DNA of 64,000 bases, taken from positions 214,901 through 278,900 of the forward strand of contig JAFDZV010000019.1 of the NCBI GenBank assembly GCA_018266795.1, read 5' to 3'. A program made the translations under genes and the position numbers. Shown here piece by piece: positions 13,894 through 21,006 of the stretch. The notes under the pieces are model-generated. The model searched no databases. It was given only the letters and a program-made list of their open reading frames with translations, and was not told where the DNA came from. This DNA comes from Bacteroidota bacterium. Lineage in GTDB: Bacteria > Bacteroidota > Ignavibacteria > OLB7. The first letter of the stretch is position 1; every line of letters starts with the position of its first letter.

Positions 13894-14808
13894 TCAACAG
13901 CAAGTCAAGCTTTCATGAATTGCACCGGCATACGTAAAGCCGGTGTCTGCATTGATATTGAATTCCATCATTCCTCCCTTCCACTCGCGCTGCGGCTGCC
14001 AGCGTGCAAGCTGGATCACCTCGTGCAGCGGAGTGCTTGGGTTGGCCGTCGAGAAACCGAAGAGAAGATTTTTTGCGCCGACAATCGCGGCGTACTGTTC
14101 AAACTGATTCTTCATCTCGGTCATCGGCCAGAAGTATCCCATCAATCCGATGTAGTCGAACAGTGTGTGTGTCCGCTGTAGAAATCGCCAGTCAGTTTCC
14201 ATTTCACGGGAAACGAATGTCATCATCCGTCCCGATCCGCTCTGTGGTCCGAAGTATCGGCTCAAGGCTTCGACCACCGAAACAAAGGTCTCGTTCGGTG
14301 TCTCGCTGTCGCCGATTTCCGGGTCGATATCTATTCCATCCAGCCCCCACTCATCGATCACCTGCGACGCCACTCGCTCGGCGAATTCCACGGGGTTCGG
14401 TATCGTGTTCCATGATATGCGCGGATACGGAGTGCTGACGATTGATGCCAGCACGCGTGTACCACGCTTCTGCAGAGCATGGGCACCATCGATGATCTCC
14501 TCCCAGCTCATTCCCCCCGAGGTCAGCAGATCGTTGTTCAATCCGCGTACCGGCCAAATATTGAGCGTAAAAAGATGGACGACATCGATATATTCGGGAA
14601 GTGCCTCCAGACGGATCCCGTTGTTGGCATACCCTACCCAGTAGGCAGCCATACGCGGACGCGGCGTCTCTTCACGATCTCGATTCAATGCCCTATTCGA
14701 ATCGAAGAGTGAATGCAGAATCGAAGCACTCGTTCCACTTCTCGCGAACTCCCCGGAGCCCGACGAGTCATCGCACTGCTGAAATATCATTTCCAGATCG
14801 CGGCCCAT
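13894..14808 (-). CDS. GH18-like glycoside hydrolase (chitinase / endo-N-acetylglucosaminidase type)
   Basis: The protein has 304 residues. The core from about residue 53 (MAAYWVGYANNGI) follows the GH18 TIM-barrel pattern, with the catalytic DxxDxDxE motif as LDGIDIDPE; the final Glu (164) would be the acid/base residue. DYIGLMGYFWP matches the later barrel strand that carries the conserved aromatic/Tyr. GH18 enzymes cut beta-1,4 GlcNAc linkages in chitin or N-glycans. No signal peptide is visible and the first ~50 residues are Ser/Asp/Arg-rich and unmatched. Starts at 14808, 14790 and 14652 are possible, none with a good ribosome site; the one at 14790 overlaps a small ORF by ATGA. Local GC is lower than average. 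Confidence 0.75.
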   Translation of the reverse strand: MGRDLEMIFQQCDDSSGSGEFARSGTSASILHSLFDSNRALNRDREETPRPRMAAYWVGYANNGIRLEALPEYIDVVHLFTLNIWPVRGLNNDLLTSGGMSWEEIIDGAHALQKRGTRVLASIVSTPYPRISWNTIPNPVEFAERVASQVIDEWGLDGIDIDPEIGDSETPNETFVSVVEALSRYFGPQSGSGRMMTFVSREMETDWRFLQRTHTLFDYIGLMGYFWPMTEMKNQFEQYAAIVGAKNLLFGFSTANPSTPLHEVIQLARWQPQREWKGGMMEFNINADTGFTYAGAIHESLTCC

Positions 14809-14921: not shown

Positions 14922-15260
14922 GATATGTCGGAAGTCTCCTCGTGCCGGTTGTCGGCAGTCCCTCGATCAATCACAGATGCAATATCGATTCATGAATCGG
15001 GCATTGAGTACTCAATTACTACTCACGTCGTAGATTGCACGGGTCGTGTCGCCCTATCCCTTTCGGCTGGTTTGGTCCGCCGTACCGGCGATTCCGGCCA
15101 GAATCTGGAGCGGCACGCACGGTGCCCCGCACTGCGCTGAGTAGAAAATGAGTACCTGATGCCCCGCTCCCCACACTAGGTTTCAACAACAGGCTGCCGG
15201 TCGTCCTGACCGGTACGCCTGAATTCCGCCCAAATAACCCTCATCATGGAGAGCCCTCCC
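14922..15260. other. Divergent intergenic region, no gene seen
   Basis: This 339-base spacer lies between the minus-strand GH18/peptide unit and the plus-strand His-rich orphan. It must hold promoters for both directions, but I cannot point to a clear motif. Confidence 0.35.
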
Positions 15261-15653
15261 ATGGCAACAGATTCCGCATCCAATTCAACCGCACCCATCG
15301 GGTACTACGCCGACGTCGCCAACCTGGACTCCACGGACTTCCCTCTCACCTTTTACGTGGTGGACGCAAGTGGTACCCAGATCCCAACGGAGATCTACGG
15401 CAACGGAGTCAATCAACCGCTCAATGCGGACACACCTCCCACGGGCTACGGTCAGGTGTCCGTGTCGATGCCGACAACCAGCTCGAAGCCGACCTCCGTG
15501 TCTACCGTTGTCGTACTTCCTTCCGGCGTCTGTCCGGTGTTCAACCCGGGCACGCAGCGAACCATTCGCATCACGGTTCGCAATTTCCCGATCACCGAAG
15601 GACGTTCGGAAGAGAACGATCATGGCAACCATGGTCATCACGGCAACGAGTGA
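15261..15653 (+). CDS. Orphan protein with His-rich C-terminus
   Basis: The protein has 130 residues and no signal peptide. It is Thr/Ser/Pro/Val-rich with beta-type alternation (DFPLTFYVVDASGTQIP, then GQVSVSMPTT, then TQRTIRITVRNFPI), like a small immunoglobulin-like or adhesive domain. It ends with an acidic-His tail (NDHGNHGHHGNE) that could bind metal. The ATG at 15261 is chosen over one at 15246 because GGAGAG is well placed before it. It is divergent from the GH18 gene; a strong hairpin follows. I recognise no family, and the GC-poorer setting hints at acquired DNA. Confidence 0.6.
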   Translation: MATDSASNSTAPIGYYADVANLDSTDFPLTFYVVDASGTQIPTEIYGNGVNQPLNADTPPTGYGQVSVSMPTTSSKPTSVSTVVVLPSGVCPVFNPGTQRTIRITVRNFPITEGRSEENDHGNHGHHGNE

Positions 15654-15803: not shown

Positions 15804-15839
15804 CGGTCCGCGATGGCAGGCTCATACCATCGCGGACCG
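15804..15839. terminator. 13-bp perfect hairpin between convergent genes
   Basis: CGGTCCGCGATGG at 15804-15816 pairs perfectly with 15827-15839; the loop is 10 bases. It lies between the 3' ends of the His-rich orphan (+) and the STAND protein gene (-), so it could serve both. The plus side continues TTCCCGTTTC; there is no true T-tract. Confidence 0.65.
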
Positions 15840-15881: not shown

Positions 15882-18800
15882 CTACTCGCCGCCCACGGCG
15901 CCATCCAGGTCATGCAGGAGCGCCTGCACTTCGGCCGCCTTCGCATGCCCGGCCTCTTCCATCTTTGCCAGAATGCTCAACGCCTTCCGACCCAGCAGCC
16001 GCGACGAGTGAACGTCGCCGCGGCGGCGCGCAAGCTCCGCAAGGTTGCCCAGCTGAATACCAACCTGCGGATGGCTTTCACCGAAACTGCTCTCGAGCAT
16101 CTCTATCGCGCGCCGAAGCAGACGTTCGGCAACCCAGAGCTCGTTGCGATCGCGATAGACCATTGCCAGCCCGCTCAACGTCACCGCCGCATCCGGATGC
16201 CCCTGGCCGAGAATGGCGCACTGCAGATCGTAGGCGCGCCGCAGATAGCGTTCGGCGCTGTCCAGATTGCCCGCGTAGTAGTAGATCCGGCCGATTGAAT
16301 AAACGATGATCGCGGTCTCGCCGTTCGCCTCCGCATGGGCCCGTTCGTGGATGGCCAGCGCACGCTTCATGAGCGGCAGAGCAAGCGTGGGGTTCCCCTT
16401 GGCCAGGAACCCGGCCCAGTTGCAGAGCACGGACGCCACCATGGGATGTTCGGCGCCAAGCGTGCGCTCCATCGATGCGGCAACGCGACTGAACGCTTCC
16501 ACTGCTCCGGCGCCGTCCCCGCTATCGCAGAGAAGCGCAGCAAGATTGTTGAGCGTGATCGCCGTGTTCGGATGATCGGGACCGTAGATCGATTCGCACA
16601 CGGAGAGCGCACGCCGGAACAGCATCTCCGCTTCGTCGTACTGCCCCTTGTCGTGAAGAATGCCGGCGAGATTGTTGATCGCGTCCGCGAGATAGGGATC
16701 GTTACCCGGCGAGCGTTCCACGATCGTAAGCGCCGTCCGGTACAGATGCTCGGCCGCATCATACTCCCCCTTCTCACGCAGCACTCCGGCCAGACTTCCG
16801 ATGGTGCGGGCCGTAGTGGGATGCTCCGTTCCCAGCAGAGCCTCCTGCACGGCCAGCGCGCGGCGATAGCAGAGTTCCGCCTCGTCCACATCGCCACGAT
16901 CCTGCAGAATGTGCGCCAGTTCGTAGAAGACGTGAGCGGTCTCGATATGTTCGCCGCCATGTAGTTCCTCCTGGAGAGCAGCAGCACGGCGCAGAAGCGT
17001 AAGGGCTTCATCGAAGTGCGCGCAGAGGCGCAGGAACTCGCCGGCCGCACTCAACACCGCTACCAGCTCGCGCCGGTCGGGGCCGGAGCGTTCGTACTCC
17101 TCAACGGCCTCCATATAGGCCGGCACAACGCTTTCCGAGGCATCTGCCTCCAGCCAGTACCCCAGCAACTCGTAGCCGCGCTCCTCGCGGATCAACGGCA
17201 GAAGAACATCCGGACTTGCAATACAGCTCTTCATCGCCTCTCGATCGCCCGCATTCTGGAACTGCCACGGAAGCTCCTCTGCGCGCCGGCGCCCGGGCTC
17301 CTCCTCACCGAAGAAGTGCGCCATCCGGCTGTGAAAGTCCCGGCGAGCAGTATCGCTGTTCAGATAGCGGCGCTCCACGGCGCGGCGCAGTGCATCGTGG
17401 TAGAAACGGAGCCGTCCATCGCTCCGAAGAAGATGATAGTCCAGCGCACCCAGAAGTTCAGCCAGTTCGAGCGGCGAACACCCGGCGCTCCGCTCCAGCT
17501 CGCGCTCGCTCATGCCGTACCGCGCACACCATATCGCGCAGAGCATGTGCCCGAGCAGGCCCGTGCCGAAGCGGTCCTCCAGCCGTTCGAGAACCTGATC
17601 GAACAACTCGTCCAGACTCTCCGCGGCGAGATATCCCTCAAGGTTCCGTCCGCGCCGTTCGAAGGAACCGAACAGGCGAATCTCCTCCAGGCGCGTGCGA
17701 AGAAAGAGCGGGTTGGATGAGGAGTCATCCACCGCAACGCGCATCACGCGGTCGGCCGGAACGGTAGCATGATGTTCGGTGATATAGTGCTGGCCGATGG
17801 CGATGCGCTCGTTGACGCTGAGCGGCTCCAGATGAAGCTGCGGCCACTTCTCCTGCCGGGCCCGGAACGGCACATCGACCGATGTGACGATGAGGCGAAC
17901 ACCGGGCGGGATATAGTTCGGCAACCACTCCAGATCGCGCGCGCCCTCACCCAGCTGCCCGATGCCGTCCACGATCAGCAGCATGCCGATGGCGGCCGCC
18001 TTGGCGAGCCAGATCGGAAATGCCTCCTCCAGTTCCTCGATGCCGGCAGGAAGATCCTCTCCCTCACCGAGCCGCTCGCGCACCTCCATCATCACGCGGC
18101 GAAGCAGTTCCGCCCGCGTTCCGCTCGAGGAGACAGCGCCCACATAGTGCGTGATGACGAAGGCATCCGGATGCCGGCGCCGATACTCGGCGCTCCAGTA
18201 CGCTACGAGCGCGCTCTTGCCGGCACCGGAAGCGCCGGTGATCACCAGCGGTGTCCCCTCTGCGGCTATGTGCTCCTCCAATCGTTCCAGCACCTCCGCC
18301 TTAGGCACGTAGGTATGCCGGCGCGATGCCGCAAACGTCTCGTGCGAGCGGCGCTCCAACTCGAGCGGCGTAAGCGATACACCCTCGGGAACAAGGCGGT
18401 TGATCACCCCGAGAAGATCGTCATGCACACGGGCGGCGAACGAGTCGGGAGTCGGGAAATCCTCGCGCACGCGCACGCCGCTCTCGCGTATCCGGGACTT
18501 GAGATCGTCCAGACGATCGGATTCATCCTGCACGTCGTCGCGATCCCCATCGCGGAAGTAGAAGAAGGAGCGTTCCTTCAACTCGTCGCTCGCAAGCACT
18601 CCCTCGGAGATCTCGATGTCGAGCATGCTTCGCTTCTGCGCGATCAACGGAAGAACGCGTGTGTGGGGATCGAGCAGCGTTGCATCGGCAGGCGGCACCG
18701 GCCGCGAGGACGCCCACCCGTAGCGCGCGCCCAGCAGACCGATAACGTACGGTCTGTTGCGCTGAAGCTCATCGAGACTGAGGCGCAACAGCTTCGCCTG

Positions 18801-18998
18801 GTGGGCAAACGTGCGCTGAACACCACGGCGAAGGTTCACGAGGGTGAAGCCGAGTCCCCTGGTCTCGCAGATCTTTGCGAGACTTGGAAAGACATCTCTG
18901 GCGAGGAGATCCAGCTCCGACTGCATCTCCCGTCCGTCGCATGTGACGAATACGCGAAGTTCGCCGACGTCGTTTGTGATGCCGTACTGTGTGCTCAT
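15882..18998 (-). CDS. DUF4062-NTPase-TPR (STAND / nephrocystin-3-like) protein
   Basis: The protein has 1038 residues. Residues ~15-100 form a DUF4062 domain (RVFVTC, REMQSELDLLARDVFPSL, LVNLRRGV, LLGARYGWA). A P-loop NTPase follows, with Walker A GASGAGKS at 255-262, Walker B MLLIVDGI near 340 and sensor RLIVTSVD near 370, then a helical winged-helix-like linker. From ~640 to ~1010 lie many TPR units of the TEHPTTARTIGSLAGVL type. This is the architecture of STAND signalling ATPases such as NPHP3/TEP1-like proteins: the TPRs sense, the NTPase oligomerises, the N-terminal domain acts. In bacteria such proteins serve in regulation or phage defence; the role here is inferred. The TPR-LuxR gene lies 36 bases upstream on the same strand. 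Confidence 0.9.
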   Translation of the reverse strand: MSTQYGITNDVGELRVFVTCDGREMQSELDLLARDVFPSLAKICETRGLGFTLVNLRRGVQRTFAHQAKLLRLSLDELQRNRPYVIGLLGARYGWASSRPVPPADATLLDPHTRVLPLIAQKRSMLDIEISEGVLASDELKERSFFYFRDGDRDDVQDESDRLDDLKSRIRESGVRVREDFPTPDSFAARVHDDLLGVINRLVPEGVSLTPLELERRSHETFAASRRHTYVPKAEVLERLEEHIAAEGTPLVITGASGAGKSALVAYWSAEYRRRHPDAFVITHYVGAVSSSGTRAELLRRVMMEVRERLGEGEDLPAGIEELEEAFPIWLAKAAAIGMLLIVDGIGQLGEGARDLEWLPNYIPPGVRLIVTSVDVPFRARQEKWPQLHLEPLSVNERIAIGQHYITEHHATVPADRVMRVAVDDSSSNPLFLRTRLEEIRLFGSFERRGRNLEGYLAAESLDELFDQVLERLEDRFGTGLLGHMLCAIWCARYGMSERELERSAGCSPLELAELLGALDYHLLRSDGRLRFYHDALRRAVERRYLNSDTARRDFHSRMAHFFGEEEPGRRRAEELPWQFQNAGDREAMKSCIASPDVLLPLIREERGYELLGYWLEADASESVVPAYMEAVEEYERSGPDRRELVAVLSAAGEFLRLCAHFDEALTLLRRAAALQEELHGGEHIETAHVFYELAHILQDRGDVDEAELCYRRALAVQEALLGTEHPTTARTIGSLAGVLREKGEYDAAEHLYRTALTIVERSPGNDPYLADAINNLAGILHDKGQYDEAEMLFRRALSVCESIYGPDHPNTAITLNNLAALLCDSGDGAGAVEAFSRVAASMERTLGAEHPMVASVLCNWAGFLAKGNPTLALPLMKRALAIHERAHAEANGETAIIVYSIGRIYYYAGNLDSAERYLRRAYDLQCAILGQGHPDAAVTLSGLAMVYRDRNELWVAERLLRRAIEMLESSFGESHPQVGIQLGNLAELARRRGDVHSSRLLGRKALSILAKMEEAGHAKAAEVQALLHDLDGAVGGE

Positions 18999-19034
18999 AG
19001 GCTGGGTGAGTCCGCTCGCACGTTGATCGCTGTT

Positions 19035-20708
19035 CTACAGCGCAGCAAGATGAATGGCAAGGTTTGCATCGGCAGGCAGCCCCATCTTCTTTCGCAGGCG
19101 ATAGCGATGATTCTCCACCGTTCGCTCGGAGAGGTAGAGCAGGTTGGCAATGTCCTTCGTAGCCAGGTTGGTTCTGAGCAGCGCGCAGATCTTCAGTTCC
19201 GTCGGTGTCAGTTCGGAGTGGAGCGAGGCAAGTGTTCGTATGAACTCGCCGTGCAATTGATCGAACTGCTCCTCGAACGCCTTCCAGTCGTTCTCGACAT
19301 CGCGGGCGGATTCGATCTGGTCAACCACGGTCTTCAACAGCTGCGTGCCTCCGGCCCCGCCACCAACCGTGCGTGCGATGCGCTCCTTCAGAACATCGAG
19401 CATCCGGTTCTTCTGAACGATGCCCAGCGCCATTGCCGTAAGCTCGCGCGACTTCAGTTCCACCTCCTTCTGCAGCTGCTCCGCCTTGAGCCGGTAGATC
19501 TCGCGTTCCCGTTCGGCCTTCTCCAGCGCAACCCGAACCTCTATCTCCGCCACGGCTTTCCGCTTCTCCTCCCCCTGCAGTTCCTCGCGCAGACGTGCGA
19601 ACATCTTGTGATGTTCCAATGCCTTGTCCGCCGCTCCAAGTTCCTCGAACGTCCGCGAGAGCGCCTCATGAATCTGGAACTCCAGCCTGCGATCACCCAG
19701 GCCCATTGCAACCCCGAGCGCACGATCCAGATCGGCAATTCCGTTCCAGAACTCGCCGCGACGGCGGCGCAGCACGCCCAGACCCGCCAGCACGGTGGCC
19801 AGGAGCGCCGGACGATTCAGCGTCTCGGCAATCGACCGCGCCTTCAACAGATGCGATACGGCATCGGTCAGGCGCCCGCTCTTCTCGTGAATGGTAGCAA
19901 TGGTCACCAGCGCCTCGGCGGCACCCGCAGGATCGCCCAGCCCCTCCTGCAGCACCAGCGTACGCATGGCGCACTCGAGCGCGGCGTCCAGTTCACCGTT
20001 GGAGAGATGAACGGCGCTGATGTTCCCCAGCGCACGCGCCTGGAGGTAGTTGTTGGAGCTTGCACGGAACAGCTCCATTGCACGCGTGAAGAAATCGAGA
20101 GCCGTTGCCAGCTCGCCCATCTGCGCGTAGACGAAACCGATGTCCAGACAGGTAACACCAACAGCATCACCGTCGCCGTCCGGCTCGCGCATGCGAAGCG
20201 CCTCGAAGTGATGCTCGAGCGCAGGCACGTATTCACCGATGTCCACGTAGACATTTCCGAGCGCCGTGTGCGCAAGCGCAATCGTAGCTGCGTCACCGTG
20301 GCGCCGTCCGATCTCGAGACTCTGCTCGTACGCCTCGAGAGCCCCGGTATACTGCTTCAGGCCAAGGCGCGCGCGCCCCAGGCCGAGCATGGCCTCCGCT
20401 GCGTCCGACCATTCGCCGAGGTTCTCGTAGAGCCTGTAGGCTTCGTGGAGATGATTCTGTGCGGCTCCGTACTCGCCGGTTGCAAGCGAGCACCAGCCGA
20501 GATGGCGCGTTGCATGAGCCCGCGCGTGCCGGTCGCCCAATCCCTCGGCGAGCGCCAACGCCTCCTCCGCCTGTTCGCGAAGCCGCGCATCGTCACCATG
20601 ATGTGAGTTGCGCAGCGCCGCAACAAGCATGGCGAGCCGGTTACGCTGCTCTCCTACGGTCGCGACCCGCACCGAGGATATGGAAACACTACCGTTGCTG
20701 GCAGTCAT
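19035..20708 (-). CDS. TPR-repeat protein with C-terminal LuxR-type helix-turn-helix
   Basis: The protein has 557 residues. A run of tetratricopeptide repeats (for example AAEAMLGLGRARLGLKQYTG, GNVYVDIGEYVPALEHH) fills residues ~20-360. A strongly charged coiled coil (EEKRKAVAEIEVRVALEKAE onward) leads to a C-terminal LuxR/GerE DNA-binding domain: LTPTELKICALLRTNLATKD, then SERTVENHRYRLRKKMGL. Many Bacteroidota TPR-coiled coil-LuxR regulators share this layout, usually with an extracytoplasmic or receptor partner. No transmembrane segment is present. An in-frame GTG at 20729 would add seven residues; neither start has a clear ribosome site. It precedes the STAND gene by 36 bases and probably shares its transcript. 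Confidence 0.88.
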   Translation of the reverse strand: MTASNGSVSISSVRVATVGEQRNRLAMLVAALRNSHHGDDARLREQAEEALALAEGLGDRHARAHATRHLGWCSLATGEYGAAQNHLHEAYRLYENLGEWSDAAEAMLGLGRARLGLKQYTGALEAYEQSLEIGRRHGDAATIALAHTALGNVYVDIGEYVPALEHHFEALRMREPDGDGDAVGVTCLDIGFVYAQMGELATALDFFTRAMELFRASSNNYLQARALGNISAVHLSNGELDAALECAMRTLVLQEGLGDPAGAAEALVTIATIHEKSGRLTDAVSHLLKARSIAETLNRPALLATVLAGLGVLRRRRGEFWNGIADLDRALGVAMGLGDRRLEFQIHEALSRTFEELGAADKALEHHKMFARLREELQGEEKRKAVAEIEVRVALEKAEREREIYRLKAEQLQKEVELKSRELTAMALGIVQKNRMLDVLKERIARTVGGGAGGTQLLKTVVDQIESARDVENDWKAFEEQFDQLHGEFIRTLASLHSELTPTELKICALLRTNLATKDIANLLYLSERTVENHRYRLRKKMGLPADANLAIHLAAL

Positions 20709-21006
20709 GGATTGCGTCGTCTGAGCCACGGGGATACTACTTGGCCGGGGGAATTACCGATGACCGGAGTGACGTCAACGGCGGCATGGTACAACCTTCA
20801 TCGTCGGCACCAAGGCGCACATGCGTACAAAGCACTGAAGCTTACATAAACGGCCGCGAATACCCAAATTATACGTGTACTCGGTTCACCATTGCATCGA
20901 GACAGGAGATGGCTTCATCTTGAAACGAATCACGTCTTTACCATCTCGCTAACTTGATCGCTTCCTGCATCGATCGGGCCGGGAACGCCACGGTCGGGAA
21001 CAGAGT

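What the first reader, a model, noticed from the sequence alone, without database searches (positions are those of the whole stretch)
15882..20708. TPR-LuxR regulator cotranscribed with a DUF4062-NTPase-TPR STAND protein
Two minus-strand genes 36 bases apart code a cytoplasmic TPR-coiled coil-LuxR transcription factor and a 1038-residue DUF4062-NTPase-TPR protein. STAND proteins with N-terminal effector-like domains and C-terminal repeats include immune and stress switches in bacteria and NPHP3/TEP1 in animals. The TPR-on-both-proteins pairing suggests one sensing partner and one output, or direct protein-protein control. The flanks (GH18 and orphan patch on one side, envelope genes on the other) do not explain it. 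The pairing as a system is not something I recognise.
Basis: inference. Interest (0 to 1): 0.65.

Follow-up and report, generated by a model that had tools for sequence, protein, structure and literature searches.

The report
Duplicated sensor-switch and regulator gene pair
A bacterium of the Kapaibacteria/Chlorobiota group carries eleven diverged copies of a two-protein module, an immune-receptor-like ATPase switch beside a DNA-binding partner, and in most copies the cell-killing part of the switch is broken or gone, which suggests the family has been rewired from triggering cell death to controlling genes.

Summary
Two minus-strand genes 36 bases apart encode a TPR-coiled-coil-LuxR protein and a 1038-residue TIR-like(DUF4062/NPHP3/TEP1)-NTPase-TPR STAND protein; a terminator-like hairpin follows the second and none lies between them. 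The pair is a real, heritable unit. This Kapaibacteria/Chlorobiota genome has 11 such STAND paralogues and its sister species 4, and all 15 lie beside a TPR signalling partner: TPR-LuxR in 14, TPR-histidine-kinase plus LuxR-type response regulator in 1. The two proteins diverge in step across 14 pairs (r=0.93; 0.82 after removing rate effects; 0/10,000 permutations). STAND homologues examined outside the genus have no such partner. The TIR-like domain's catalytic Glu, kept in 26/26 unpaired homologues, survives in 3/15 paired ones (including this one) and the whole domain is gone in 5, while Walker motifs persist. Sister modules often carry opposite-strand cargo (small predicted beta-proteins, caspase or transglutaminase-like enzymes). 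Best reading, inferred: a 'split MalT', an NLR-like ATPase that signals through its TPR partner to transcription rather than, or in this copy perhaps besides, NADase killing. Partner contact, DNA targets and trigger are untested. New variant of a known kind.

The parts
19035..20729 (-). TPR-coiled-coil-LuxR(GerE) regulator, first gene of the pair (start GTG 20729 or ATG 20708)
   Evidence: GerE 40 bits, TPR_12 109 bits; same gene order found only in L029
19053..19214 (-). LuxR-type helix-turn-helix (residues 506-559)
15882..18998 (-). TIR-like(DUF4062/NPHP3/TEP1-type)-STAND NTPase-TPR protein, 1038 aa
18384..18962 (-). TIR-like domain (residues 13-205)
   Evidence: TEP1 TIR 11gz_A E 6e-9; model pLDDT 83, VIA-align top hits RPS4 TIR Z 11.0, DNPH1 10.9, MilB 10.2
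18612..18614 (-). Glu129, equivalent of the TEP1 catalytic E1008 (R23, K69, R92 align with R908, R954, R976)
   Evidence: PMC13174449
17199..18371 (-). STAND NTPase core (about residues 210-600); Walker A GASGAGKS at 18213-18236
15951..17081 (-). C-terminal TPR array (about residues 640-1016)
   Evidence: kinesin-light-chain-like TPRs
15804..15839 (-). Terminator-like hairpin after the operon (15-bp stem, 10 G-C pairs)
15246..15653 (+). Candidate cargo: 135-aa orphan ORF convergent with the STAND; its position resembles the small predicted beta-protein cargo of sister modules, homology not shown
13894..14808 (-). Possible cargo hydrolase: EndoS/GH18-like TIM barrel with DGIDIDPE motif; no other copy in four genomes; membership in the module is inference

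Best explanation
The pair is a two-protein signal-transduction module that works like a split MalT. The STAND protein is the sensor-switch: its TPR array is the likely ligand-binding surface and its NTPase core the ADP/ATP switch that multimerises. The TPR-coiled-coil-LuxR protein is the output: TPR-TPR contact with the activated STAND would let its LuxR domain bind DNA, with the pair's own operon and neighbouring cargo genes as candidate targets. The STAND descends from TEP1/NPHP3-like TIR-NTPase proteins whose TIR-like domain in other lineages is an NAD-cleaving killer. In this genus, pairing with a TPR transcription partner went together with decay of that domain. In the window copy the pocket residues are kept, so it may have two outputs. 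Shown: two genes, the domains, the fold, the co-inheritance, the loss pattern. Inferred: cotranscription, partner contact, DNA targets, trigger, biological role.
For: 15/15 STANDs of the family in two species have an adjacent TPR partner; 14 pairs co-diverge, Pearson 0.93, 0/5000, and 0.82 without row effects, 0/10,000. The partner is a TPR-LuxR in 14 and a TPR-HisKA-HATPase plus REC-GerE pair in one (L028): the constant is a TPR transcription output. The LuxR tree needs at least two changes (window+L029 against 12 others), while the 15 STANDs form one side of a supported branch (95/91). Walker A GKS and the Walker B Asp persist in 15/15 while the catalytic Glu is kept in 3/15 against 26/26 unpaired (Fisher 6e-8, not corrected for relatedness). 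Closest precedent: MalT and PH0952, STANDs with TPR sensors (PMC6468293).
Against: No physical interaction, DNA target or inducer was tested. Pairing is known in only two genomes of one genus. The window copy itself keeps the TIR-like pocket (R23, K69, R92, E129), so killing may still be its output. Solo TPR-LuxR genes are common in these genomes, so the LuxR protein may do other work.
Confidence: 0.5

Rival explanations
1. The STAND is an NADase executioner (TEP1/Swarozyc-like abortive defence) and the LuxR protein only sets its expression level.
For: Window keeps E129 and the three Arg/Lys pocket positions; TIR fold; DUF4062 domains are NAD+ hydrolases in bacteria and in TEP1 (PMC13174449).
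Against: 12 of 15 equally paired STANDs lack the catalytic Glu or the whole domain, yet keep the switch and the partner; the SST loop that is near-invariant in homologues is TCD here; human NPHP3, NWD1 and NWD2, with the same architecture, were inactive (PMC13174449).
Confidence: 0.25
2. An extension of the best explanation, not exclusive with it: the module is a three-part conflict system of STAND switch, TPR-LuxR relay and divergently transcribed cargo (small predicted beta-proteins with caspase, transglutaminase-like or other hydrolases) as the true effectors.
For: Opposite-strand genes lie between STAND and LuxR in L024-L027, L030, L032 and L035, their starts facing the LuxR start across 66-417 bp. 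Caspases in L030 and L032 with His/Cys dyads, transglutaminase-like in L027. Homologous cargo across distant modules: L030/L032, L031/L036. The A4 cargo family is found genome-wide only in modules. Unpaired STANDs also tend to have a convergent small ORF and sometimes a C39-like peptidase.
Against: The window has the reverse order (LuxR first); its 135-aa ORF has no detectable homologue and its GH18-like gene is not shared with other modules. L028 has no cargo in the gap. Many cargo ORFs are too short and divergent to call with certainty, and no matched control for convergent neighbours was run.
Confidence: 0.3
3. The genes are neighbours by inheritance without functional coupling: an old tandem copied as a block.
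For: One genus only; a single origin of the paired STANDs is compatible with the tree.
Against: All 15 copies stayed paired through divergence to about 22-30% identity, gene order is reversed in two copies, and at least two LuxR lineages plus a kinase/response-regulator version fill the partner slot.
Confidence: 0.07

Closest known systems
Human TEP1 / NPHP3 / NWD1 / NWD2 (DUF4062-NACHT STANDs)
   Same: Order TIR-like domain, STAND NTPase, repeats (TPR in NPHP3); significant match to the TEP1 TIR structure; catalytic Glu kept in the window copy
   Different: Bacterial; paired with a TPR-LuxR gene; TIR-like domain decayed or deleted in most paralogues
Swarozyc (KpSwz), PMC13174449
   Same: Same TIR-like NADase superfamily with the catalytic Glu
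   Different: Swarozyc is DUF4062 plus a winged-helix auxiliary domain that binds the phage portal; here NTPase plus TPR and a regulator partner; no defence shown
MalT and LAL regulators (STAND-TPR-LuxR in one chain)
   Same: STAND NTPase, TPR sensor and LuxR output
   Different: Here the output sits on a second TPR protein, and the STAND carries a TIR-like N-terminal domain
NTP-dependent conflict systems of Kaur et al. 2020, PMC7159879
   Same: NTPase switches with caspase or other hydrolase effectors nearby
   Different: DUF4062 is not mentioned and LuxR only in the reference list of the main text
FxSxx-COOH system TPR protein FxsT (NF040586)
   Same: Similar TPR array
   Different: 219 bits against a cut-off of 300; an FxSxx peptide was not looked for

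Membership tests
DUF4062 TIR-like NADase | Match to the Pfam DUF4062 model over cut-off | tested here: not met
   No PF13271 row at E<=0.001; PF25022 NPHP3 21.7 bits < 33
DUF4062 TIR-like NADase | TIR/NDT fold | tested here: met
   11gz_A E 6e-9; VIA-align TIR/NDT hits Z 10-11; Foldseek alone had no hit at E<=0.001
DUF4062 TIR-like NADase | Catalytic Glu (TEP1 E1008) | tested here: met
   E129; R23, K69, R92 at the other pocket positions
DUF4062 TIR-like NADase | NAD+ hydrolysis | not testable with these tools
   needs enzyme assay
Swarozyc | Auxiliary winged-helix domain after DUF4062 | tested here: not met
   NTPase and TPRs follow instead
Swarozyc | Activation by phage portal, phage protection | not testable with these tools
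   needs phage assay
TEP1/NPHP3-type STAND | TIR-like domain, STAND NTPase with Walker A and B, C-terminal repeats | tested here: met
MalT/LAL | NTPase, TPR and LuxR HTH in one protein | tested here: not met
   Split over two genes
MalT/LAL | ATP- and ligand-gated DNA binding | not testable with these tools
   needs biochemistry
Known anti-phage systems in PADLOC 2.0 | Match to system models | tested here: inconclusive
   Only generic TPR, CARF-tagged TPR/HTH and weak DpdH/mad8/Jet matches

The most novel reading that the evidence does not exclude
A lineage-specific arsenal of NLR-like modules (11 in one genome) in which a TIR-type cell-death receptor has repeatedly lost its NADase and been rewired to a trans-acting TPR-LuxR or TPR-kinase relay that switches on divergently encoded protease or hydrolase effectors: a bacterial case of immune receptors moving from executioner to gene inducer.
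Probability: 0.35. Interest if true: 0.82.

Novelty: new variant of a known kind. Interest (0 to 1): 0.62.

Why it matters
DUF4062 was only recently named a TIR-like NADase family, with antiphage action in bacteria and activity in the vault protein TEP1, while NPHP3 and NWD1/2 were inactive (PMC13174449). A bacterial family with the same architecture, in which catalytic decay goes with acquisition of a transcription partner, gives a tractable model for what non-catalytic TEP1/NPHP3-type receptors do. It would also add a two-protein form of the STAND-TPR-LuxR switch known as one chain in MalT.

Tried and rejected
Alignment A1 was too diverse for the search for related loci; A2 worked. Foldseek alone gave no significant hit for the TIR-like model; the second look by VIA-align did. 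The 135-aa orphan has no convincing homologue in the four genomes searched and folds poorly alone. PADLOC gave no specific system. A codon-usage gene caller trained on the pair genes missed much of the beta-rich cargo, so cargo was judged by homology and Pfam. Rejected: that the 945-aa antisense ORF 17769-20606 (+) is a gene; it mirrors two well-supported coding genes. Rejected: that the pair is merely a chance neighbour of two common genes.

Full report
What is there. The window lies in contig C10 of a 5.97 Mb genome. The two minus-strand genes are as described. The upstream gene (19035-20729) encodes TPRs, a coiled-coil stretch judged from sequence, and a GerE domain; the downstream gene (15882-18998) encodes an N-terminal domain, an NTPase and a long TPR array. 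Nothing that looks like a terminator lies in the 36-base gap, and a 15-bp-stem hairpin follows the second gene. Cotranscription is therefore likely but inferred.

The N-terminal domain. Pfam does not call DUF4062 here. The sequence matches the crystal structure of the TEP1 TIR-like domain (11gz_A, E 6e-9). Chain positions 15, 61, 83 and 115 are R, R, R and E, which equal TEP1 R908, R954, R976 and E1008 if the chain starts at 894; the paper (PMC13174449) names exactly these residues as pocket and catalytic. The window has R23, K69, R92 and E129 there. The AlphaFold model (18 sequences, pLDDT 83) matches plant TIR domains, SPARTA TIRs and nucleoside hydrolase/transferase relatives at Z 10-11. 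The near-invariant SST loop of relatives is TCD in the window, so activity cannot be assumed.

Paralogues and pairing. Searching the N+NTPase part found 11 family members in this genome, 4 in the sister species, and others in the same family and class. I fetched flanks of these and tested for the LuxR protein. All 15 in the genus have a TPR signalling partner on the same strand, upstream in the window and L029, downstream elsewhere. In L028 the partner is a TPR-HisKA_3-HATPase kinase overlapping the STAND end, followed by a REC-GerE response regulator. None of the STAND homologues in other genera, including further ones from Methylococcaceae, Metabacillus and Puniceicoccaceae, has a comparable same-strand neighbour in the stretch held; some of those stretches are short. 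A phylum-wide sample of 395 genomes shows the STAND itself is rare (7 genomes).

Co-evolution. For 14 STAND/TPR-LuxR pairs the distance matrices correlate at 0.93 (0/5000 permutations) and 0.82 after removing per-row rate effects (0/10,000). The STAND tree puts the 15 paired copies on one side of a branch with 95/91 support. In the LuxR tree the window and L029 partners are separate from the other 12 (at least two changes), and L028 uses another class of protein. So the partner slot seems to have been filled more than once by a TPR transcription-output protein, which is hard to explain unless the STAND needs such a partner.

Loss of the effector. In 26 of 26 unpaired homologues the Glu of the S-x-x-x-x-E motif is present. 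In the 15 paired ones it is kept in the window, L023 and L027, lost in L024, L025, L026, L029, L030, L032 and L037, and the domain is absent in L028, L031, L034, L035 and L036. GKS of Walker A and the Walker B Asp are kept throughout. The Fisher value (6e-8) ignores relatedness, but different replacements and whole-domain losses inside one subclade suggest several independent events.

Cargo. In L024-L027, L030, L032 and L035 the gap between STAND and LuxR holds genes on the opposite strand whose starts face the LuxR start (66-417 bp apart). L030 and L032 encode caspase-fold peptidases with His and Cys in place, L027 a transglutaminase-like protein. The small proteins of L024, L026 and L035 form a family found genome-wide only in these modules, with a weak hit (15 bits) beside an unpaired STAND in G003. 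L030/L032 and L031/L036 share cargo although their STANDs are only about 27-32% identical. Unpaired STANDs in two families also tend to have a convergent small ORF, and three of them a C39-like peptidase nearby. No matched control for convergent neighbours was run, so I treat cargo as a strong lead, not as shown. In the window the counterpart would be the 135-aa orphan (15246-15653) and perhaps the GH18-like gene (13894-14808); neither has a homologue in the other modules.

How it most likely works. By analogy with MalT and PH0952, STANDs with TPR sensors held closed by NTPase-sensor contacts (PMC6468293), the STAND opens on ligand binding and ATP exchange and multimerises. I infer that the multimer captures the TPR part of the partner and thereby activates its HTH. 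The window copy could in addition cleave NAD.

What is known. Swarozyc and TEP1 share the N-terminal domain; MalT shares the logic; Kaur et al. 2020 share the theme of NTPase switches with nearby hydrolases. Nine papers in the library mention DUF4062; from their titles, abstracts and the one read in part, none describes this pairing, and subscription papers are mostly missing from the library. I therefore call it a new variant of a known kind.

Noticed in passing
window 17769-20606 (+): A 945-codon open frame runs antisense to both genes; probably a by-product of GC-rich codon usage.
   Followed up: partly
L033 (G000:C18:82440-82691): A separate short DUF4062 protein (206-codon frame, 50 bits over the Pfam cut-off) exists in the same genome, not part of a STAND module.
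   Followed up: no
L086, L090, L094, L101: In Methylococcaceae and one Chlorobiota MAG a same-strand gene after the STAND has a GVTGHRDI-type motif or its continuation (SLOG-like?); a recurring neighbour in another phylum.
   Followed up: no
L054, L056, L091: STAND homologues of about 600 aa without TPRs, followed by same-strand genes of about 480-570 aa, as if the repeat part were split off.
   Followed up: no
L100: Three DUF4062-STAND matches in tandem in a Puniceicoccaceae MAG.
   Followed up: no
L080 (G003:C87) and G004:C38: Solo TPR-LuxR genes lie within about 6 kb of a 935-947-codon frame with a caspase domain over the Pfam cut-off; the G003 one branches among the paired LuxR proteins.
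   Followed up: no
L023 13745-15428: Two phage tail collar domain proteins follow this module's LuxR gene.
   Followed up: no
L031 5499-7426 and L036 4101-6734: Homologous cytochrome-P460-like (below cut-off) plus small predicted beta-protein genes sit divergently upstream of the STAND in both modules.
   Followed up: partly
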